Below, in pieces: positions 1-16,582 of a stretch of DNA of 20,703 bases. The stretch covers positions 1-20,703 of the IMG/VR virus record IMGVR_UViG_3300035670_001445; one strand, written 5' to 3'. Position 1 is the stretch's first letter; each line of letters starts with the position of its first letter. Origin of the DNA: a virus. The notes below the pieces were generated by a model, which saw only the letters and a program-made list of their open reading frames with translations, had not been told where the DNA came from and did not search any database. The translations under genes and the position numbers were made by a program.

Positions 1-78
1 CATTTGTTTTGCTATGTTATGGTCAATTTCTAATAACTTGAGCCAAAACATATCGACTGCTGTTTTTTTTGTTTCCAT
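1..78 (-). CDS. Partial small phage protein, N-terminus only
   Basis: An open frame on the minus strand starts with ATG at 78-76 and runs off the left edge after 26 codons; it begins METKKTAVDMFWLKLLEID. The AVDMFWLKLLE stretch vaguely recalls short Bacteroidota phage proteins that start with MKTAVEWL, but that is recollection, not a search. It lies 3 nt downstream of the ERF stop codon and has the same A-rich leader (AAACCTTAAACA-ATG) as the other leftward genes, which supports it being the next gene of that operon. Function unknown. Confidence 0.55.
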   Translation of the reverse strand, partial: METKKTAVDMFWLKLLEIDHNIAKQM

Positions 79-81
79 TGT

Positions 82-627
82 TTAAGGTTTTATTTGTTTA
101 AGTGCGGTTTCAAGTTTAATAAATTCATCCTTTGTTTCTGCTTTGTTTATGGCAGCTATAGCCTTTGCTCTTCTTTCCTCAGGTAGCTTTTCAGTTTGTC
201 TAATCAAAGCGTCTTTCTCCTCCCTTGTAGGTTGATCCTTGCCATGTGTATTGGTAGCGTCTGGATCTCGGCTGTCATCTAACAAAAACAATCCTTGCAA
301 AGCATATTTCCGAGAATAAGAAGAGGAGCTGCCAAAAGACTGAGCAATGTCCATCCCTTTGCGGTTTATATCAATACCAGCCTGCGCAGTTACAGTAGCA
401 TTAGTTTCATTAGGAGCGCAAAATTTAGCTGTAGATTCAACATAAACTAATCCTCCTGATGTTTCTTTTATGGCATCACTTAAAATTAAAATACATTCGT
501 ATTTCAACAATAACGGCTTAACAGCTTCTAGAATATCCTCTGCATTCCGGTACTTATACTTACCGAATTCGTTAAACTGATTCTTAGGCGCTTTGAGTTC
601 GGCCTGAATTGATAATAACTCTTTCAT
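82..627 (-). CDS. erf: ERF-family single-strand DNA annealing protein
   Basis: The 181-aa protein looks like an ERF (essential recombination function) protein, a phage recombinase that anneals complementary single strands during replication, recombination or genome circularisation. Seen in the sequence: the N-terminal block with KAPKNQFNEFGKYKYRNAED (about residues 13-32), then a beta-rich core, then GSSSSYSRKYALQGLFLLDD (about 98-117), which is the most diagnostic ERF stretch. The C-terminal 60 residues are charged and helical and probably not part of the core. Length is usual for the family. The ATG at 627 is preceded by AAACCATAAACAC and no Shine-Dalgarno sequence, as for its operon neighbours. 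It is the third gene of a leftward operon starting near 1042, typical of an early/replication module. ERF membership is high confidence; the recombination role is inferred from the family. Confidence 0.9.
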   Translation of the reverse strand: MKELLSIQAELKAPKNQFNEFGKYKYRNAEDILEAVKPLLLKYECILILSDAIKETSGGLVYVESTAKFCAPNETNATVTAQAGIDINRKGMDIAQSFGSSSSYSRKYALQGLFLLDDSRDPDATNTHGKDQPTREEKDALIRQTEKLPEERRAKAIAAINKAETKDEFIKLETALKQIKP

Positions 628-638
628 GTGTTTATGGT

Positions 639-893
639 TTAAAAGTTTACGGTTTCGTTTTTATATAATGGTTGCCTCTTTGCACCGATGCGAATACCTG
701 CCCAAAATAGATCGCTGCAAAACATATCCACATTTTTAATCTCAATTTCTACTTTTCTGCTGCTGAAAGCATTTTCGGGATGAATAGCTAACAGCCTGCA
801 ATAATCTGATTCTTCGCTGCATTCAGCATCTTTAAAGCATATCGACTTAATATGATCAATATCTTCAATGTTTACGTACATACTTATTTGCAT
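639..893 (-). CDS. Hypothetical early-region protein, 84 aa
   Basis: I do not recognise this 84-aa protein. It starts MQISMYVNIEDIDHIKSI and has four cysteines (CFKDAEC, YCRL, MFCSD), too scattered to propose a metal site. No membrane segment or signal peptide is visible. Its ATG at 893 lies inside the end of the upstream 52-aa gene, a 10-nt overlap that suggests translational coupling, and it ends 11 nt before the ERF start. Position suggests an accessory role in the early operon. Confidence 0.7.
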   Translation of the reverse strand: MQISMYVNIEDIDHIKSICFKDAECSEESDYCRLLAIHPENAFSSRKVEIEIKNVDMFCSDLFWAGIRIGAKRQPLYKNETVNF

Positions 894-1042
894 GGTGTCA
901 GGTTTTTAGATTTAAGAATGGCTTGCTTTTGTTTGTGGTTGCGAAGGTGGCGACCTTTGTAGAATGGTCTTGCAACATAAAGTTTAAAGCTGTCTAGGTA
1001 AAAGTAGAGGAAAACAAGACCTCCGATAATCCAAAGTAGCAT
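884..1042 (-). CDS. Small single-pass membrane protein, 52 aa
   Basis: A 52-codon frame runs from ATG 1042-1040 to TAA 886-884 on the minus strand. It encodes one N-terminal hydrophobic segment (MLLWIIGGLVFLYFYLD, residues 1-17) followed by a strongly basic tail (about residues 27-48, KGRHLRNHKQKQ), the pattern of a small inner-membrane protein with a cytoplasmic basic tail. It is the first gene behind the leftward promoter at 1085-1115, with a 5' leader of about 35-40 nt whose end reads AAAAACTAAACACT-ATG. Its stop overlaps the next start by 10 nt. Function unknown; small membrane proteins of early phage operons may target host functions, but nothing in the sequence shows that. Confidence 0.6.
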   Translation of the reverse strand: MLLWIIGGLVFLYFYLDSFKLYVARPFYKGRHLRNHKQKQAILKSKNLTPCK

Positions 1043-1084
1043 AGTGTTTAGTTTTTAAGTTTACAATAATTCGTAATGACATAG

Positions 1085-1115
1085 CAAATATACACAGCTT
1101 TTACACAATTCCAAA
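1085..1115 (-). promoter_or_regulatory. Leftward promoter, Bacteroidota type
   Basis: On the minus strand TTTG (1115-1112) is followed after 19 nt by TATATTTG (1092-1085). This matches the Bacteroidota primary-sigma consensus, -33 TTTG and -7 TAnnTTTG, in both sequence and spacing. Transcription would start near 1080 and give a leader of about 38 nt before the ATG at 1042. It sits in an AT-rich divergent region between the leftward and rightward gene blocks. No comparable promoter was found reading right from the same gap. Confidence 0.7.
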
Positions 1116-1150
1116 TTTTTTTTAAAATTTTTTTTATTTATTTTTCGGGC

Positions 1151-9943: not shown

Positions 9944-12068
9944 GACAGAGGTAGGTGCAAGTGTAAATGTAGAGTTTAAGTCGGTAGGTGAGATGCGAAA
10001 AGCTATTAAAGACGCAACAAGCGATTTAATAGTAATGCAGGAGCAGTTTGGCAAGACTTCGCCACAAGCGATAGAAGCGGCGCGTAGGATTGCAGATTTA
10101 AAAGATAGGATTAACGATGCAAGGGAGCAGGCGGATTTGTTCGATCCCGGAAATAAATTCAAAGCTTTTTCAAATGCGGCTTCACAGGTGGCGGCTGGGT
10201 TTTCTGCTGTTCAGGGTGCAATGGCGTTAGTAGGTGAAGAGAGTGATGATTTACAAAAGACATTAGTTAAGGTGCAGGGTGCAATGGCATTAAGTCAGGG
10301 ACTTAGTCAGATTGCTGATTTAGGAAAGGCTTATGAAGAATTAAAGATAGTAGCTGTAAACGCTTTTCGTGCAATCAAAACGGCAATAGGTAGTACCGGT
10401 ATCGGTTTGCTTGTTATTGCATTGGGTGCTATTGTTGCTTATTGGGATGACATAAAAGGTGCTGTGAGTGGTGTTAGTCAAGAACAGAAAAAGTTAAATA
10501 AAGCATCTGAAGATAATTTAAAGGCTCAAAAGGGCAAATTAGATGCAATAAGTAAGCAAGAAAATACATTAAAATTACAGGGTAAAAGTGAAAAAGATAT
10601 TTTAAAATCTAAAATAGATCAGACTAATCAGACTATTAAAGCTGCCGAAATAAATTTAAAGAATAGTATACAAACTCAAAAATCACAGGTAGCGGCTGCA
10701 AAAAGAAATAAGGAAATACTTGAGGGCTTAATTGCATTTGTTAGTTTGCCATTGACAGCGGTGTTAAAAGGTATTGATTTAATAGGTCAAGCTGTTGGTA
10801 AGAATTTTGATTTGTATGGTAAGTTTACGGGAGGTTTGGCTGGTCTTGTATTCGATCCCGAGCAAACAAAAAAGGACGGCGATGCTTCTATTAAAGCACA
10901 AGAAGATGCGTTAACTGAGTTAAAAAACCAAAGAGATGGTTTTATATTATCATCGAGAGATATTGATAAAAAAGGTGAAGAAGAGAGAAACAAAGCAGTT
11001 CAGGAAGCAGATGACAAAGCCGCAAAGGCAAGAGAAGAAGCTGAAAAAATATTATTTGAATCTCGAAAAGCATTGATGTCTCAAAGAGATGCTGAACTTT
11101 TAGACTTAGAAACGAAAAGAGTTGAGGAAGAAAAAAGATTAATAGCCGCAGGCGTTAAAGATAGATCTGCTTTTGATGAGGCATATCGTTTAAAAAGAAA
11201 AGAGATTAACGATAAATTCGACAAACAAGAAGATGATAAAAAGGCGGCTGATGTTAAAAAAGAAAAAGATTTTCAAGATCAATTAAATAAAATTATATTA
11301 GAAACTAGATTAGCCGGAATACAAGATGAAACACAAAAAGAGATTGAGCAATTAAATATAAAATATGCTGAACAAAGAGCTTCGATATTGGCAAATGAGA
11401 ATTTAACTGAAGAGCAGAGATTGGCATTGTTAAAAGCATTAAAAGAGAAAGAAGCGCAAGAATTAGGAGCGATTGATGAAAAAAGAAAAACACAAAAAGA
11501 ACAAATAAATGCACAAATTTTACAAGCAGAGATTCAATTACAAGATGCAACATTTGCTGCAACTAGTGCTGGTCTTAGTGCCTTAGAAACATTAGCAGGC
11601 AAAAACAAAAAATTAGCAAATGCTTTTTTTGTTATTGATAAAGCATTGGCGATTGTGAAAATCATAATGGACACGCAAAGGGAAATAGCTTCATATTATG
11701 CAGCCGGTGCGGCAAGCCCTATGAATTTAATAGTGCCAGGATCTGGTATGGCATTGGCTACAAAACAAGCTATAGCCGCAAAAATAAGGGCGGCTGGTTC
11801 TATTGCAACAATAGCGGCTACATCTATTGGTAGGTTTATGAATGGAAGCGGTGGCGGCGGTACGGGGCCAACTCCCCCACCTCCTCCCGGAAACATGAAC
11901 GCACCTATGTCACCAACATTATCTCCCGTTGTGCAAGGGCAGGCGTTAAATTCAATGGCAATAAATAACTTAGGTAATCAGTCTTTAAGGGCATACGTAA
12001 TGAATTCAGATATACAAAATAACAATCAAAGAAACGCATACCTTGAGCGTAATGCAAGGATCGGATAA
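9936..12068 (+). CDS. Tape measure protein
   Basis: 710 aa from ATG 9936 (MAKTEVGASVNVEF); the TTG two codons upstream is less likely. It is dominated by long alpha-helical, Lys/Glu/Gln-rich coiled-coil stretches (about 180-260 and 330-560), with hydrophobic segments near 150-172 (IGSTGIGLLVIALGAIVAYW) and 245-265, then an Ala-rich helical region and a Gly/Pro-rich linker (GSGGGGTGPTPPPPPG). The end, RAYVMNSDIQNNNQ, is a C-terminus I associate with tape measure proteins of this phage group. It sets tail length and is threaded through the tail tube; by the usual 0.15 nm per residue the tail would be about 105 nm, consistent with a long-tailed phage. Overlaps the upstream gene by 8 nt and ends 1 nt before the protease start. 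Confidence 0.88.
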   Translation: MAKTEVGASVNVEFKSVGEMRKAIKDATSDLIVMQEQFGKTSPQAIEAARRIADLKDRINDAREQADLFDPGNKFKAFSNAASQVAAGFSAVQGAMALVGEESDDLQKTLVKVQGAMALSQGLSQIADLGKAYEELKIVAVNAFRAIKTAIGSTGIGLLVIALGAIVAYWDDIKGAVSGVSQEQKKLNKASEDNLKAQKGKLDAISKQENTLKLQGKSEKDILKSKIDQTNQTIKAAEINLKNSIQTQKSQVAAAKRNKEILEGLIAFVSLPLTAVLKGIDLIGQAVGKNFDLYGKFTGGLAGLVFDPEQTKKDGDASIKAQEDALTELKNQRDGFILSSRDIDKKGEEERNKAVQEADDKAAKAREEAEKILFESRKALMSQRDAELLDLETKRVEEEKRLIAAGVKDRSAFDEAYRLKRKEINDKFDKQEDDKKAADVKKEKDFQDQLNKIILETRLAGIQDETQKEIEQLNIKYAEQRASILANENLTEEQRLALLKALKEKEAQELGAIDEKRKTQKEQINAQILQAEIQLQDATFAATSAGLSALETLAGKNKKLANAFFVIDKALAIVKIIMDTQREIASYYAAGAASPMNLIVPGSGMALATKQAIAAKIRAAGSIATIAATSIGRFMNGSGGGGTGPTPPPPPGNMNAPMSPTLSPVVQGQALNSMAINNLGNQSLRAYVMNSDIQNNNQRNAYLERNARIG

Positions 12069-12069
12069 C

Positions 12070-13101
12070 ATGGAACAGTTACCATTATTTAGATTAACGA
12101 TAAAAGAAGATGAAAACGCCACACAGGAAGTGAATGCGGTGGCACTTGTTGACATACCGGCAATAGGTGAAAACTTCTTCGCATTTGAAAAACAATTATT
12201 TGTTGAGCCGAATGCAGGCGAATCAGAAGAGGAATTTATACCTCGCTGTATTTCGTACATGGTAGGTGAGGGCAAAGATCAAGAACAAGCGGCTGCTATT
12301 TGTTATAGCAAATGGAGTTCTCGAAATGAGAACTTTCAAGAAAGATACAGCGACTATCCAAAACAGGCAAGTGAAAACGCAAAGATAGCGTTAAGGTGGG
12401 CGGAGGAAAACGGATGGGGTGAATGTGGAACGCCTGTTGGCAAAGCGAGGGCGAATCAATTAGCAAAAGGTGAGCCGATAACACGTGAAACAATTGCACG
12501 AATGGCAGCCTTTGAAAGACATAGACAAAACTCACAAAAGGAATTAGGTGACGGATGCGGTCGGCTTATGTGGCTTGCATGGGGCGGTGATGCTGGCATA
12601 GAGTGGGCGCAGCGTAAACTTGAGCAAATAGATAAACAAAAGATGCATGCTTTTTCCGTTGTCAATAATGAAGAGCGTATAGTAGTTGGTCCAGCAATGA
12701 TACCAGATATGCCGATTTATAGACGTGATGAAACAGGCGAATACTATGTTTTCTTTGACAAAAAGACTATTGAAACGATTGCTTTGAAGTTTTACGCAAA
12801 AGGCTTTCAACAGAGTGCAAATGAAATGCATACAAAGCCAGTAGAAGGTATTACCTTTTTCATGTCGTGGATAGCAGATGAAAGTAAAGGCATTCCGAAA
12901 ATGAAGCAGTTTGAAGACCTACCAGACGGCACGTGGTTTTTAGGTGCAAAGGTTATGAATGATGAAACGTGGGCAAAGGTCAAGGATGGCACTTTTAAAG
13001 GATTTAGCGTGGAGGGTATGTTTGATATGACGGAAGTTAAAATGAGAATGAAAGAAGAAGAGATCATTCAAAAGTTAAGAGAATTGCTTAAAGATTTTTG
13101 A
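12070..13101 (+). CDS. XkdF-like prohead protease with inserted domain
   Basis: 343 aa from ATG 12070 (MEQLPLFRLTIKED), which starts 1 nt after the tape measure stop; upstream TTG/ATG codons would overlap it. N-terminal strands VNAVALVDIPAIG (21-33) lead into an insertion of about 140 residues: a Cys-containing segment FIPRCISYMVGEGKDQEQAA (56-75) and a Trp/Gly-rich domain (about 97-190) with GKARANQLAKGEPITRE and LMWLAWGGDAG. The protease core resumes at RIVVGPAMIPDMPIYR (203-218), with a likely catalytic histidine in NEMHTKPVEG (H254) and serine in FKGFSVEGMF (S313). The fold would process the scaffold and capsid precursors. The inserted domains are known to me from other phage head-maturation proteins. 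Catalytic residues are read by analogy with XkdF-type proteases. Confidence 0.78.
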   Translation: MEQLPLFRLTIKEDENATQEVNAVALVDIPAIGENFFAFEKQLFVEPNAGESEEEFIPRCISYMVGEGKDQEQAAAICYSKWSSRNENFQERYSDYPKQASENAKIALRWAEENGWGECGTPVGKARANQLAKGEPITRETIARMAAFERHRQNSQKELGDGCGRLMWLAWGGDAGIEWAQRKLEQIDKQKMHAFSVVNNEERIVVGPAMIPDMPIYRRDETGEYYVFFDKKTIETIALKFYAKGFQQSANEMHTKPVEGITFFMSWIADESKGIPKMKQFEDLPDGTWFLGAKVMNDETWAKVKDGTFKGFSVEGMFDMTEVKMRMKEEEIIQKLRELLKDF

Positions 13102-13177: not shown

Positions 13178-14182
13178 ATGAAAATCCTAACACTAACACA
13201 AAAATTTAGCGGCTGTGGGTATCACAGGCTTATGCTTCCGATCTCATTAATGGAAAAAGAATACGGTAGAATTACCGATTCGATGACTGATGAACAATGG
13301 GAAGAACATGATTTTGACATTGTTTTTATTAATCGCATTTGGGAGCGTGAAAACCTAATTGAAAGGCGAAAGCAGAAAGGGTTTAAATTGGTTGTCGATG
13401 TTGATGACTATTGGATATTATCTCACGATCATTTGATGTATGAAGGTTACAATGCTTCAAACTTTGCCGGTCGTTTAATAGAACACATGAGGGAAGCTGA
13501 TTTAGTTACTTGCACTCACGAAAGGCTGGCAGATGCTATCTATGCACACAATAAGAACGTTCAAATATTACCGAACGCGATACCTTACAATCAGTTACAG
13601 TTCAATGGTGAAAGGGTAGTTACCGATGCGGTCAAATTGTTTTGGGCAGGCGGCATAACACATGAACAGGATATTAAGTTATTACAAGCACCGTTAAAAA
13701 AGCTATCCGGTAACATTCACATGGTTATGGGTGGCTTTGCGGATTCTAACGATACGGAGCGTTATTACTGGCATAGAATGGCTAATTACTTTACATCGGA
13801 CCAGGCTTTGCCGCATACGTTAATTAGAGGCATGGATGTGTTTAATTATTACGAAATGTTCAAACATTCTGACATTATGTTAGTGCCATTGGTGAAGAAT
13901 AATTTTAACGCTTACAAGTCGAATATTAAGCTTTTGGAGGCGGCTGGTAAGGCAATACCGGCTGTTGTTTCTCATGTCGATCCGTACTTAGGTTTTCCCG
14001 AAGATGTAGTTAAATATGTCAAAAAAAGTAGCGACTGGACTCGACATATTAACGAATTAGTGAATGATAAAGATATGAGAGATGAACTTGGAGTTTTATT
14101 ACATACATACTGCTCTAAGTATTTCAATTTCAATGATATAAACGAAAAAAGAAAAGACGCTTTTTTAAAGTTGTTAAGTTAA
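13178..14182 (+). CDS. Glycosyltransferase, GT4-like (GT-B fold)
   Basis: 334 aa from ATG 13178 (MKILTLTQKFSGCGYHRL). A GT-B type plan is visible: N-terminal half with VVDVDDYW (72-79) and ADLVTCTHERLADAI followed by VQILPNAIPY (128-137), the D-x-V...S/T...L...IPN pattern common before the domain boundary of GT4 enzymes; C-terminal half with LFWAGGITHEQD (154-165), SDIMLVPLVKNNF and YKSNIKLLEAAGKAIPAVVS (246-265), equivalent to the E-x7-E-like nucleotide-sugar binding loop. No membrane helix or signal peptide. It stands alone between the hairpin cassette and the tandem-repeat region, amid head genes. Donor, acceptor and target are unknown; glycosylation of the virion or host surface is possible. 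Confidence 0.78.
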   Translation: MKILTLTQKFSGCGYHRLMLPISLMEKEYGRITDSMTDEQWEEHDFDIVFINRIWERENLIERRKQKGFKLVVDVDDYWILSHDHLMYEGYNASNFAGRLIEHMREADLVTCTHERLADAIYAHNKNVQILPNAIPYNQLQFNGERVVTDAVKLFWAGGITHEQDIKLLQAPLKKLSGNIHMVMGGFADSNDTERYYWHRMANYFTSDQALPHTLIRGMDVFNYYEMFKHSDIMLVPLVKNNFNAYKSNIKLLEAAGKAIPAVVSHVDPYLGFPEDVVKYVKKSSDWTRHINELVNDKDMRDELGVLLHTYCSKYFNFNDINEKRKDAFLKLLS

Positions 14183-14185
14183 TAT

Positions 14186-14236
14186 TTCAACGGTCGTTCA
14201 ACAGTCGTTCAACGGTCGTTTAACAGCCGTTCAACA
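14186..14236 (+). repeat. 11-bp tandem repeats, about 4.6 copies
   Basis: Four full copies of TTCAACGGTCG-like units: TTCAACGGTCG, TTCAACAGTCG, TTCAACGGTCG, TTTAACAGCCG, then a partial TTCAACA. They begin 4 nt after the glycosyltransferase stop and are non-coding. Iteron-like spacing of one helical turn suggests a protein-binding array, a packaging site or an origin, none proved. Confidence 0.85.
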
Positions 14237-14290
14237 AAGTAAAGTAAAGTAAATAAAGTAAAGTAAATAAAAGAAATAAAGTAAAGTATA
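14235..14290 (+). repeat. AAGTA/AAATA low-complexity tandem tract
   Basis: Directly follows the 11-bp array and consists of irregular AAGTA and AAATA pentamers with almost no C. It would be an easily melted A-rich strand next to the iteron-like units. Slippage-prone, so copy number may vary. Confidence 0.8.
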
Positions 14291-14292
14291 TT

Positions 14293-14308
14293 ATGCGTTT
14301 GCACGCAT
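14293..14308. other. Perfect inverted repeat ATGCGT-TTGC-ACGCAT
   Basis: Two 6-bp arms (14293-14298 and 14303-14308) around a 4-nt centre, in the leader of the scaffold and capsid genes. No T run follows, so it is more likely a small operator or RNA hairpin than a terminator. Confidence 0.45.
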
Positions 14309-14354
14309 GTAAATTCACTTTTTCATTGGTAAATGTCCAGTTTTTTTAGGTTTC

Positions 14355-14367
14355 GGTATATATGGGC
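14355..14367 (+). promoter_or_regulatory. GGTATATA start-proximal motif, site 3
   Basis: A one-base variant (GGTATATA) of the motif, again 13 nt before an ATG (14368). The spacing favours 14368 over the ATG two codons upstream at 14362. Confidence 0.35.
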
Positions 14368-14958
14368 ATGAAGAATCCGATCGAACTTTTAGCACAGGTT
14401 AAAAAACTTGTTTTTCAAGAAGAGACAATGCCAGCTCCTGAATACACTTTGGCAGACGGCACAAAGATTATGGTTTCCGCTTTGGAAGTTGGCGGTATCG
14501 TTACACTCGAAGATGGCTCACCTGCTCCGGCTGGTGAACACACTTTAGCAGATGGTACTGAAATCGTACTTGCTGAAGGAGGCGTAATAGCTGAAATTGA
14601 TCCGAAAGAAGTTGAGGAAAAAGTTGAGGTTGAAATTGAAAGCGGCAAGGATATGGAAGAAAAAAAGGATGAAGAGAAAGAGAAAATGTATTCTAAATTT
14701 TCTGAAATTGAAAGCCGTATCGCTGCAAGTGAGCAAAGCTTCTCCGCTTTACAATCTGATTACGAAGGTTTAAAAACTGCATTTGGAAAACAAAGCGAAG
14801 CAATGCAGGGACTTATTCAGCTTGTTGATACTTTGGTTAACGTACCTTCTCAAGCACCAACTGAAATGCCTAATAACTTCAAAAAAGTTAGCATTGAAAC
14901 TAAGGCTGACCGCATTCGCAATTATTCAAATTTCGTTTCACAATTTAAAAACAAATAA
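14368..14958 (+). CDS. Scaffold-like capsid assembly protein
   Basis: 196 aa from ATG 14368 (MKNPIELLAQVKKLVFQ); 14362 is an equally open alternative. It lies 2 nt before the major capsid gene, the usual scaffold position. Seen: an N-terminal helix, two related beta-like units carrying TLADGT (about 28-33 and 59-64) with an intervening SPAPAGEH, a very acidic/lysine-rich linker (about 80-108), a coiled coil (about 110-160) and a basic C-terminus (NNFKKVSIETKADRIRN). Long charged helices with a basic tail are characteristic of scaffolds that bind capsid subunits and are then cleaved by the prohead protease. The TLADGT repeats are known to me from Bacteroidota prophage proteins in this position. 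Call by position and composition. Confidence 0.65.
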   Translation: MKNPIELLAQVKKLVFQEETMPAPEYTLADGTKIMVSALEVGGIVTLEDGSPAPAGEHTLADGTEIVLAEGGVIAEIDPKEVEEKVEVEIESGKDMEEKKDEEKEKMYSKFSEIESRIAASEQSFSALQSDYEGLKTAFGKQSEAMQGLIQLVDTLVNVPSQAPTEMPNNFKKVSIETKADRIRNYSNFVSQFKNK

Positions 14959-14960
14959 AG

Positions 14961-15938
14961 ATGGCTTTTTTAGTAACTGGCCTTACGGCTTATGTAGAGC
15001 AAAATGAGCAACAGCTTGTTTCTCAGTCGCTGTTTGAGGCGAGAACTCAACAGCTTATCGTTTCTGAAGGAAATGTAATGACCGGAGTTAAAGGCTCTGA
15101 AACTGTTAACAGAATGGATACTGATGTATTCTTTCAAGATGACAGCTCATGCGGTTTCGCTGCTTCCGGAACAACTGAATTTACTCAACGTACTTTGACT
15201 GTTGGTAAAATCAAAACACAGGAAATCCTTTGTCCGAAAGATCTTGAAGGTAAGTATCTGCAAAAGGCACTTCCCGCTGGATCTAATTACGATACAATGG
15301 CTTTCGCTCAAGAATATACTAACCTGAAAACAGGCAAGATTGCAGAAGCTCTTGAAGTTGCAATTTGGCAAGCTACAGGTGCAGGATACGGCGGTACTAA
15401 CGGACTTTTAAACAAGTTCAAAGGTATTAAGCAATTGATCACAGATGCAACTACAACTCCTGTAGATGCAAACGTAACTGGCTTTTACGGATCGGGTGCG
15501 CCAATTACCGGTATAGATACTGCTGACAAAGCAAAAGCGGCTGTACTTGCAGTTATTAAAGCTCTCCCTGCAAAGATCAAAGGTAAAACAGATGTTCGCA
15601 TCTTCTGCGGATGGGATACTTTCGATCTGCTTGTAAGCAAGTATGTTGATCTTAATCTTTTCCATTACAATTTTGGAAACGATAAAAATGAGCCTAACGC
15701 AGAATTCATCGTACCTGGTACATCTTACAAAGTTATCCCTGTACATGGTTTGACTGGCACTAACGATATCTATGCTTTCAGAATGAGTAATATCTTCTTG
15801 GGTGTTGATTTGCAAGGTGAAGATGAGCGTTTTGAAATGTGGTACTCTCAAGATGATCGCAATGTGAAGTTTCACGCTTCATTCAAGATCGGTGTGCAGT
15901 TCGCCTTCATGGATGAGATCGTTAAATTCGAAGCTTAA
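14961..15938 (+). CDS. Major capsid protein, HK97-like
   Basis: 325 aa starting MAFLVTGLTAYVEQNEQQLV. Features that support a capsid: a helical N-terminus, a long central domain (about 100-240) with EALEVAIWQATGAGYGGTNG, and a C-terminal block RNVKFHASFKIGVQFAFMDE (about 299-318), which resembles the P-domain end of HK97-fold coat proteins. The FHASFKIGVQ segment is close to those in Bacteroidota phage capsids as I recall them. Context is strong: scaffold directly upstream, a hairpin directly downstream, portal and protease nearby. Base composition is richer in C-containing codons than neighbours, as often seen in highly expressed genes. Confidence 0.85.
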   Translation: MAFLVTGLTAYVEQNEQQLVSQSLFEARTQQLIVSEGNVMTGVKGSETVNRMDTDVFFQDDSSCGFAASGTTEFTQRTLTVGKIKTQEILCPKDLEGKYLQKALPAGSNYDTMAFAQEYTNLKTGKIAEALEVAIWQATGAGYGGTNGLLNKFKGIKQLITDATTTPVDANVTGFYGSGAPITGIDTADKAKAAVLAVIKALPAKIKGKTDVRIFCGWDTFDLLVSKYVDLNLFHYNFGNDKNEPNAEFIVPGTSYKVIPVHGLTGTNDIYAFRMSNIFLGVDLQGEDERFEMWYSQDDRNVKFHASFKIGVQFAFMDEIVKFEA

Positions 15939-15987: not shown

Positions 15988-16506
15988 ATGGCGTGTGCAT
16001 TAACACAAGGTTATAGTTTGGATTGTAAGGATTCAGCTGGTGGCATTACCGAAGTTTACTTTATCGAAAAAGCAAATGTTTCAGCTATTGCAGATGCTTC
16101 AGGTGTTGTTACTGGATTGACTAAGGCAAGCGGTAAGCGTTTCTGGAAATATGAACTACCAAAAGAAACAGGAAACTTTACTCACAATCCACAAGTTTCA
16201 ACTGAAAACGGAACTTTGTTTTTCGAACAGAATCTTACAATCGTTGTTAACAAACTTTCAGCGGCTGTAAATACAGAGCTTAAGTTGTTAGCTCAAAACG
16301 TTCTTATTGCAGTTGTTAAGGATAATAATAATAAGTTTTGGATGCTAGGTAAGGAAAGAGGAATAGATATGGCAGCATCTGAAAGCGGAAGCGGTACAGC
16401 TTTTGGAGATCGTTCAGGATATACTTTAAACTTTATGGGTAAAGAGCCTGATCAACTTTATGAAGTAAATAGTACCGTTGCTGCGGCACTTGAAACAGCT
16501 GGTTGA
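15988..16506 (+). CDS. Tail tube-like / major structural protein
   Basis: 172 aa starting MACALTQGYSLDCKDSAGGI. The start, MACALTQGYSLDCKDS, and the alternating strands (RFWKYELPKETGNFTHNPQV, LFFEQNLTIVV) are of a kind I recall from Bacteroidota prophage structural proteins placed right after the capsid. The size and beta-rich, acidic-poor composition fit a tail tube subunit; it is also in the slot of a strongly expressed gene, flanked by hairpins on both sides. No other tail-tube candidate is visible in the window. Alternative: a capsid decoration protein. Confidence 0.6.
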   Translation: MACALTQGYSLDCKDSAGGITEVYFIEKANVSAIADASGVVTGLTKASGKRFWKYELPKETGNFTHNPQVSTENGTLFFEQNLTIVVNKLSAAVNTELKLLAQNVLIAVVKDNNNKFWMLGKERGIDMAASESGSGTAFGDRSGYTLNFMGKEPDQLYEVNSTVAAALETAG

Positions 16507-16529
16507 TAATTGATGAAGAATAGGTAAAG

Positions 16530-16559
16530 CGCCTGCCTGCATTTAGGCGGGCGTTTTTT
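16530..16559 (+). terminator. Intrinsic terminator after tail tube-like gene
   Basis: A 9-bp stem CGCCTGCCT / AGGCGGGCG (one T-G pair), loop GCATTT, then six T. The CCTGCCT core is shared with the hairpins at 6065 and 13131. Confidence 0.85.
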
Positions 16560-16566
16560 GTTAATC

Positions 16567-16582
16567 GGTATTTATAAAAGGA
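16567..16582 (+). promoter_or_regulatory. GGTATTTA start-proximal motif, site 4
   Basis: GGTATTTA is followed by TAAAAGGA and the ATG at 16583, a spacing of 16 rather than 13 nt. It lies 7 nt after a terminator T run, like sites 1 and 2. Confidence 0.35.

What the first reader, a model, noticed from the sequence alone, without database searches (positions are those of the whole stretch)
14186..14308. Iteron-like 11-bp array, A-rich tract and inverted repeat before the capsid genes
About 4.6 copies of an 11-bp unit (TTCAACGGTCG), one helical turn each, are followed by a C-poor AAGTA tract and a perfect ATGCGT-TTGC-ACGCAT inverted repeat, all in a 185-nt gap. Direct repeats at one-turn spacing next to an easily melted tract are typical of replication origins and of multi-site repressor or packaging sequences. 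A lone position between glycosyltransferase and scaffold is not explained by either.
Basis: seen in the sequence. Interest (0 to 1): 0.55.

Follow-up and report, generated by a model that had tools for sequence, protein, structure and literature searches.

The report
Second origin-like cassette among capsid genes
A short repeat block in front of a virus's capsid genes looks like a second copy of the DNA docking site that related bacterial viruses carry inside their own replication-starter gene, and where the starter gene is of another type the second copy is of that type too, which suggests it is used to run or switch genome copying.

Summary
In detail: 4.6 copies of an 11-bp unit (14186-14236), the window's longest C-free tract (14236-14295) and an inverted repeat (14293-14308) in a 179-nt gap. 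It has the layout of an origin cassette (iterons plus A-rich tract). The same unit lies in the linker of replication-initiator genes (Lin1244_N, DUF1376) of unrelated phages. Of 33 initiator genes compared with their own contigs, 12 have a second copy of their internal cassette elsewhere, mostly in a late-gene gap: all 3 of the window's clade, 8 of 9 of a second clade, and G002. Five iteron types occur; in these 12 the iterons alone match above 500 shuffles (G046 narrowly). Some gaps stack two types, like a record of past initiators. The closest known arrangement is phage SPP1: oriL inside gene 38, oriR in the late region, both bound by gp38. I propose an oriR-like second initiator-bound locus: second origin and/or fork block switching to concatemer replication. 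Caveats: the window's own initiator gene is outside the 20.7 kb; binding and replication are untested; 20 genes show no second copy, including an apparently complete hybrid genome (G083) and clade-2 G039; a Porphyromonas phage has a copy with non-matching iterons.

The parts
14186..14236 (+). iteron array, type A: TTCAACGGTCG-like 11-bp units, 4.6 copies
   Evidence: same unit inside initiator-gene linkers of other phages
14236..14295 (+). A-rich, C-free tract (AAAGTAAAG repeats), candidate DNA-unwinding element
   Evidence: longest C-free run in the window; an A-rich tract follows the iterons in the initiator genes and in the 12 matched distal copies
14293..14308 (.). inverted repeat ATGCGT-TTGC-ACGCAT; several relatives carry ATGTGT-TTC-ACACAT, a change on both arms
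   Evidence: not found in the type-B cassette of L003/G001
14319..14361 (+). block before the scaffold gene (TTTTTCATTGGTAAATGTCC...GGTATATAT), recognisable also in relatives without the cassette; candidate late promoter/leader
   Evidence: read by eye from printed sequences; function inferred
14961..15938 (+). gene taken as the major capsid protein from its position (matches phrog_11320, unknown function); used to find relatives
   Evidence: the capsid identity itself is not shown by any search
16507..16582 (+). gap corresponding to the place of the distal cassette in the second phage clade; no cassette here
82..627 (-). Erf-type single-strand annealing recombinase, early region; in relatives the initiator gene lies a few kb beyond it, outside the window

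Best explanation
The block is a late-region, second copy of an initiator-internal replication origin: iterons for the phage's replisome organizer, followed by an A-rich unwinding tract. The arrangement is like phage SPP1's oriR beside its oriL. Shown by sequence, in relatives: the late cassette matches the iterons and tract inside the same phage's initiator gene, and differs in type where the initiator differs. Inferred: the initiator binds both sites, and the same holds for the window's phage. Proposed mechanism: early theta replication starts at the initiator-gene origin. The second site, somewhat under half a circle away in the two apparently complete genomes, then acts as a second origin and/or, when loaded with initiator, as a fork barrier that starts recombination-dependent (Erf-assisted) concatemer synthesis for packaging.
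For: Same 11-bp unit inside frames of initiator type in 18 of 26 stretches found. Initiator gene against its own contig: second copy at 52-109 bits in 12 of 33. Iterons alone: these 12 exceed all 500 shuffles of their own gap, and scores group by five iteron types. One location (the gap before the scaffold gene) holds three types, each matching its own initiator (G004 A, G001 B, G021 C). An A-rich tract directly follows the iterons in these 12 distal copies, whereas in lambda the AT-rich part is dispensable for O binding (PMC7466680 passages) and for plasmid-borne inhibition (PMC3349717 passages); its retention therefore points to strand opening (inference). Four of six of these initiators scanned match the PHROG family 'replication initiation protein' well; the G004 model has a winged-helix-like N-domain (weak match) and a low-confidence linker. 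SPP1 oriL/oriR has the same layout, with oriR beside moron genes in the late region (PMC6316719, PMC3485210 passages).
Against: The window's own initiator gene is not in the window, so the pairing is shown in relatives only. 47 of 60 capsid-gene relatives show no known cassette at this place. G083, an apparently complete hybrid with the same early region but another capsid module, has no second copy (best 31 bits); G039 of clade 2 has none. 18 further initiator-gene contigs, some incomplete, show none (own best at most 41 bits), so such initiators do not generally need one. Bit scores alone are not decisive: chance-level hits in unrelated contigs reach 55 bits, above G021's 52.5, so G021 rests on the iteron test; G046 passes that test narrowly (25 against a shuffle maximum of 23), and the iteron strings and gaps were cut by hand after the gene-wide hits were seen. 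In Porphyromonas phage005b the distal copy matches the gene's flank (68 bits) but not its iterons (174 of 500 shuffles as good). No binding or replication data.
Confidence: 0.62

Rival explanations
1. Titration or handcuffing site: the distal iterons soak up or pair initiator molecules and damp initiation (as plasmid control iterons do), without being an origin.
For: Matched iterons in the 12 phages are equally expected. Ectopic lambda origins arrest lambda (abstract of PMC4488673), and titration/handcuffing is discussed for lambda O (PMC3349717 passages).
Against: An A-rich tract is kept right after the iterons in all 12 of these distal copies, although in lambda it is not needed for O binding or for plasmid-borne inhibition.
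Confidence: 0.15
2. Late-gene operator: the initiator bound upstream of capsid genes times late transcription, coupling it to replication.
For: In clade 1 the cassette lies directly before the scaffold gene, in clade 2 in a stretch downstream of the capsid gene, in Porphyromonas phage005b upstream of head genes.
Against: The gene that follows differs between clades, and the block before the scaffold gene is recognisable with or without the cassette. Promoters were not tested.
Confidence: 0.1
3. Neutral scar: pieces of initiator genes recombined into the late region and decayed, without function.
For: In G046, G055 and G057 the similarity extends upstream of the iterons into what is initiator coding sequence in the gene, and Porphyromonas phage005b carries a gene-fragment copy with non-matching iterons. 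Stacked types at one place look like repeated captures.
Against: Matching iterons plus tract in 12 phages, in two clades at two different places and in a third phage (G002), are hard to keep without selection or continual re-copying.
Confidence: 0.13

Closest known systems
Bacillus phage SPP1 oriL/oriR (PMC6316719, PMC3485210; passages read)
   Same: Two loci of direct repeats plus an AT-rich unwinding element, one inside the origin-binding-protein gene, one in a late-region segment that also holds moron genes; an annealing recombinase is encoded.
   Different: Uncultured phages, with initiators of Lin1244_N and a DUF1376-like type; the distal locus differs in type with the initiator and can stack types. 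The two loci are about 18 kb apart in circles of 30.5-32.0 kb (12-13 kb in SPP1's 44 kb). SPP1 binding is reported, here it is inferred.
Phage lambda ori inside gene O (PMC3349717, PMC7466680, PMC6022878; passages read)
   Same: Iterons then an AT-rich tract inside the initiator gene, between an N-terminal DNA-binding part and a C-terminal part joined by a flexible linker.
   Different: 18-bp iterons; the passages read place the origin within gene O and mention no second, late-region copy.

Membership tests
SPP1-type dual origin (oriL/oriR) | origin with direct repeats and AT-rich element inside the initiator gene | tested here: inconclusive
   repeats and A-rich tract are present in the initiator genes of relatives G001, G004, G021, G002 and clade 2, but the window's own initiator gene lies outside the 20.7 kb, and origin activity was not tested
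SPP1-type dual origin (oriL/oriR) | second locus of the same organisation in a non-coding late-region gap | tested here: met
   window 14183-14361; in relatives, 12 distal copies matching their own initiator
SPP1-type dual origin (oriL/oriR) | one protein binds both loci | not testable with these tools
   only sequence matching
SPP1-type dual origin (oriL/oriR) | theta-to-sigma switch / fork stalling at the distal locus | not testable with these tools
   an Erf-type annealing protein is encoded, which is compatible only
SPP1-type dual origin (oriL/oriR) | initiator homologous to gp38 | not tested
   the SPP1 record was not found in the collections
lambda-type initiator-internal origin | iterons plus A-rich tract encoding a flexible linker between two parts of the initiator | tested here: met
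   in relative G004: linker 122-156 under pLDDT 50 between better-predicted parts, linker DNA; N-domain fold match weak. Not testable for the window's own initiator

The most novel reading that the evidence does not exclude
The late-region gap is a cassette register: each time the phage acquires a new initiator (new DNA-binding domain plus its iterons), a matching origin cassette is added or replaced there, leaving older types beside it. Beyond serving its own replication, the stacked foreign-type cassettes may titrate the initiators of competing phages in a mixed infection.
Probability: 0.2. Interest if true: 0.8.

Novelty: new variant of a known kind. Interest (0 to 1): 0.63.

Why it matters
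How a phage moves from circle-to-circle replication to packaging concatemers is, for SPP1, described in the papers I read as a model. Here initiator and distal site differ together, in two clades and five iteron types, which gives matched and mismatched pairs to test whether the second site is an origin, a fork barrier or a titrator. It also gives a simple rule, self-match of the initiator-gene linker, to look for origins and distal sites in uncultured phage genomes.

Tried and rejected
Tried without gain: megablast of the window and a distant DNA search of the gap in isolate phages (none, and 10 weak hits at E 0.01 or worse); the capsid-gene protein in isolate phages (no match) and the A2 alignment in bacterial genomes (44 pattern matches, no relative); the type-A cassette pattern in bacterial genomes (none). 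The host is therefore not identified; the G004 initiator's C-terminal part is closest (63%) to Flavobacterium phages among isolates. An attempt to extend the window leftwards to its own initiator gene found only G082/G083, a hybrid phage with another capsid module. PDB sequence search of the initiator: no match; Foldseek: nothing under E 0.001; the VIA second look gave mostly winged-helix domains (my naming) at Z up to 6.9, a level that may be only a common arrangement.

Rejected: chance repeat; coding sequence (no frame of 60 aa or more within the gap); simple microsatellite expansion (does not explain the matching to the initiator). A packaging site was not tested. The inverted repeat shows one two-sided change but was not found in the type-B cassette, so I give it no firm role.

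Rows dropped or special: G032 (its initiator gene meets a terminal repeat) was left out as a query but stayed, unmasked, in the background, as did G012, whose own initiator gene was not masked; these two head many 'best other' lists, so own copies rank 1 to 5 of 46 there, behind those two and same-type phages in most cases. G050 carries both genes, but its contig ends close to the capsid gene and it was not fetched. G024, G031 and G033 were fetched only to 40 kb. Searches kept the best 80 of 123 and of 93 relatives. The 60 loci are not independent: some are near-identical, and a cassette of unknown type would be missed by its motif count (one search shows no non-coding gap over 110 nt before the scaffold gene in the others except a 118-nt terminator-like one in L078).

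Full report
OBSERVATION. The gap 14183-14361 (179 nt) between the gene ending at 14182 and the scaffold-like gene at 14362 holds an 11-bp array at 14186-14236 (4.6 copies), a C-free A-rich tract at 14236-14295 and an inverted repeat at 14293-14308. The array is not chance: 34 of 40 lag-11 matches, no other place in the window at 33 or more (lags 6-40), and at most 31 in 200 dinucleotide shuffles. The tract is the longest C-free run in the window.

RELATIVES OF THE CAPSID-POSITION GENE. The gene 14961-15938 is taken as the capsid gene from its position; its PHROG family has no known function. 80 loci encoding close relatives were fetched (best 80 of 123). Of 60 loci with at least 950 nt upstream of it, 13 show cassette motifs before the scaffold gene. 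The 47 others do not; in those printed, the upstream gene mostly ends a few tens of bases before the scaffold gene. The cassettes differ: type A (TTCAACGGTCG) alone in 2 (L002, L044); A with C (GGGAGGCTAATG-like) in 3 (L006, L008, L039); A with B (ACATATG-like) in 1 (L003); C with B in 1 (L033); C alone in 6 (L007, L010, L027, L036, L040, L050). In the gaps printed, arrays are followed by A-rich tracts. A block before the scaffold ATG (window 14319-14361) is recognisable with and without the cassette.

THE UNIT IN INITIATOR GENES. A scan for two adjacent type-A units in viral contigs returned 26 stretches. 6 are the gap cassette of this clade (L044, L085, L094, L097, L098, L104) and 1 is another intergenic cassette (L082). 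In 18 the array lies inside an open frame of 157-346 aa with the layout of an initiator (N-terminal part, then a linker); L102 was not resolved. Of 10 such proteins scanned against Pfam, 3 match DUF1376, 2 Lin1244_N and 1 DUF6291 above their cut-offs; 4 have no match above cut-off, so their nature is inferred from layout. In the 19 records other than the seven intergenic ones, matches to the tandem pattern fall in one cluster per record (many are fragments).

PAIRING WITH THE PHAGE'S OWN INITIATOR. Longer contigs gave the initiator gene of capsid-gene relatives. G004 has a Lin1244_N initiator with type-A linker and a type-A late cassette. G001 has another N-terminal part (DUF1376 below cut-off) with a type-B linker; its late gap holds a type-B cassette next to a type-A array. 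G021 has a Lin1244_N initiator with type-C linker and a type-C late cassette. The C-terminal part is shared (84-100% over 85 residues), which suggests that N-terminal part and iterons were exchanged as a unit. The search with that C-terminal part (best 80 of 93) led to a second clade (capsid-gene protein 44-49% identical). Of its 9 contigs fetched, 8 (G040, G045, G046, G047, G048, G052, G055, G057, not G039) carry a second copy of their initiator linker in the stretch downstream of the apparent homologue of window 15988-16506. Small opposite-strand frames lie in that stretch, and in G048 the frame of the following gene stays open through the cassette. G002, in which seven window proteins find no match, also has a second copy (65 bits).

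CONTROLS. In all, 33 initiator genes were tested against their own contigs (32, G083). 12 have a distal copy matching in iterons and tract (52-109 bits); Porphyromonas phage005b has a distal copy that matches mainly in the flank (68 bits); 20 have none (own best at most 41 bits). Bit scores alone do not settle it: the gene of G001 finds 55 bits in an unrelated phage, above G021's 52.5. For the iterons alone, cut by hand, the 12 exceed all 500 dinucleotide shuffles of their own gap, G046 narrowly (25 against 23), and Porphyromonas does not (174 of 500 as good). The cross-matrix groups by type: same-type scores 25-103, other-type scores mostly under 25 and at most 30, except that G001's gap scores 42 with both type-A initiators, as its stacked A array predicts. 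An A-rich tract follows the iterons in all 12.

GENOME PLACEMENT. G045 and G048 end in 123- and 127-nt direct repeats, so I take them as complete circles of about 32.0 and 30.5 kb. From the coordinates their two sites are about 17.8 and 18.2 kb apart, 0.56 and 0.60 of the circle (0.44 and 0.40 the short way). In G001 they are about 18.7 kb apart in 31.4 kb of contig. G083, also with a 127-nt terminal repeat (35.3 kb), is 92% identical to window 1-1139 but has a different capsid module and a sixth linker repeat type; it has no second copy. On this one comparison the second site goes with the capsid module and not with the early region.

THE INITIATOR. PHROG calls the G004, G021, G047 and G002 proteins 'replication initiation protein' (E 5e-11 to 1e-22); G055's match is weak (5e-4) and G001's protein hits only a family of unknown function. 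The predicted G004 model has mean pLDDT 66.5, an N-terminal part at about 82-91 (residues 21-90), and a linker at 122-156 under 50, encoded by the iterons and tract. Its N-terminal part resembles winged-helix domains at Z up to 6.9, which is weak.

KNOWN SYSTEMS. [quoted passage not shown] oriL lies in gene 38, oriR in a late-region segment with moron genes; gp38 binds both; fork stalling at oriR is the proposed trigger of concatemer synthesis (passages of PMC6316719 and PMC3485210). In lambda the origin lies in gene O (passages); its AT-rich part is not needed for O binding or for plasmid-borne inhibition, so keeping such a tract in the distal copies favours strand opening over mere titration (inference). 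My searches listed no paper that I recognised as describing a late-region copy of an initiator-internal origin other than SPP1; they cover open-licence papers only, and I saw listings and the starts of abstracts.

CONCLUSION. Shown by sequence: the block is of the same kind as the cassettes inside initiator genes, and in relatives the late copy matches the phage's own initiator type. Inferred: the initiator binds it. Proposed: it works like SPP1 oriR. It is not established that the window's phage itself has a type-A initiator.

Noticed in passing
G083/G082 (L271-L274): Hybrid phage (apparently complete in G083) with the window's early region (92% over window 1-1139) and a wholly different capsid module; its initiator linker has a sixth repeat type (GGGGCTAGGCAA).
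   Followed up: partly
window 12043-13101 and 14362-14958: Protease and scaffold-like genes match different parts of one PHROG family (phrog_24921), so they may be one gene elsewhere; the glycosyltransferase-like gene and the cassette lie between them.
   Followed up: no
L114 2908-3345 (G001): Small early protein with a DnaA helix-turn-helix match (Bac_DnaA_C, E 1e-11); a possible second origin-binding protein.
   Followed up: no
L083-L106 (frames of initiator type): Nearly the same 11-bp unit (AACGACCGTTG / TTCAACGGTCG) sits in the linkers of initiators of several families and of different base composition, on either strand relative to the gene.
   Followed up: partly
L036, L044, L050 gap before scaffold: After the A-rich tract there are GTAC-containing repeats (a perfect ATGTACGT...ACGTACAT inverted repeat in L036 and L050), perhaps another protein-binding site.
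   Followed up: no
L261 30312-30445 (Porphyromonas phage005b): Distal copy of an initiator-gene fragment with three ACAAACGACTG 11-bp units before the head genes, overlapping a small annotated hypothetical gene; its units do not match the resident initiator gene.
   Followed up: partly
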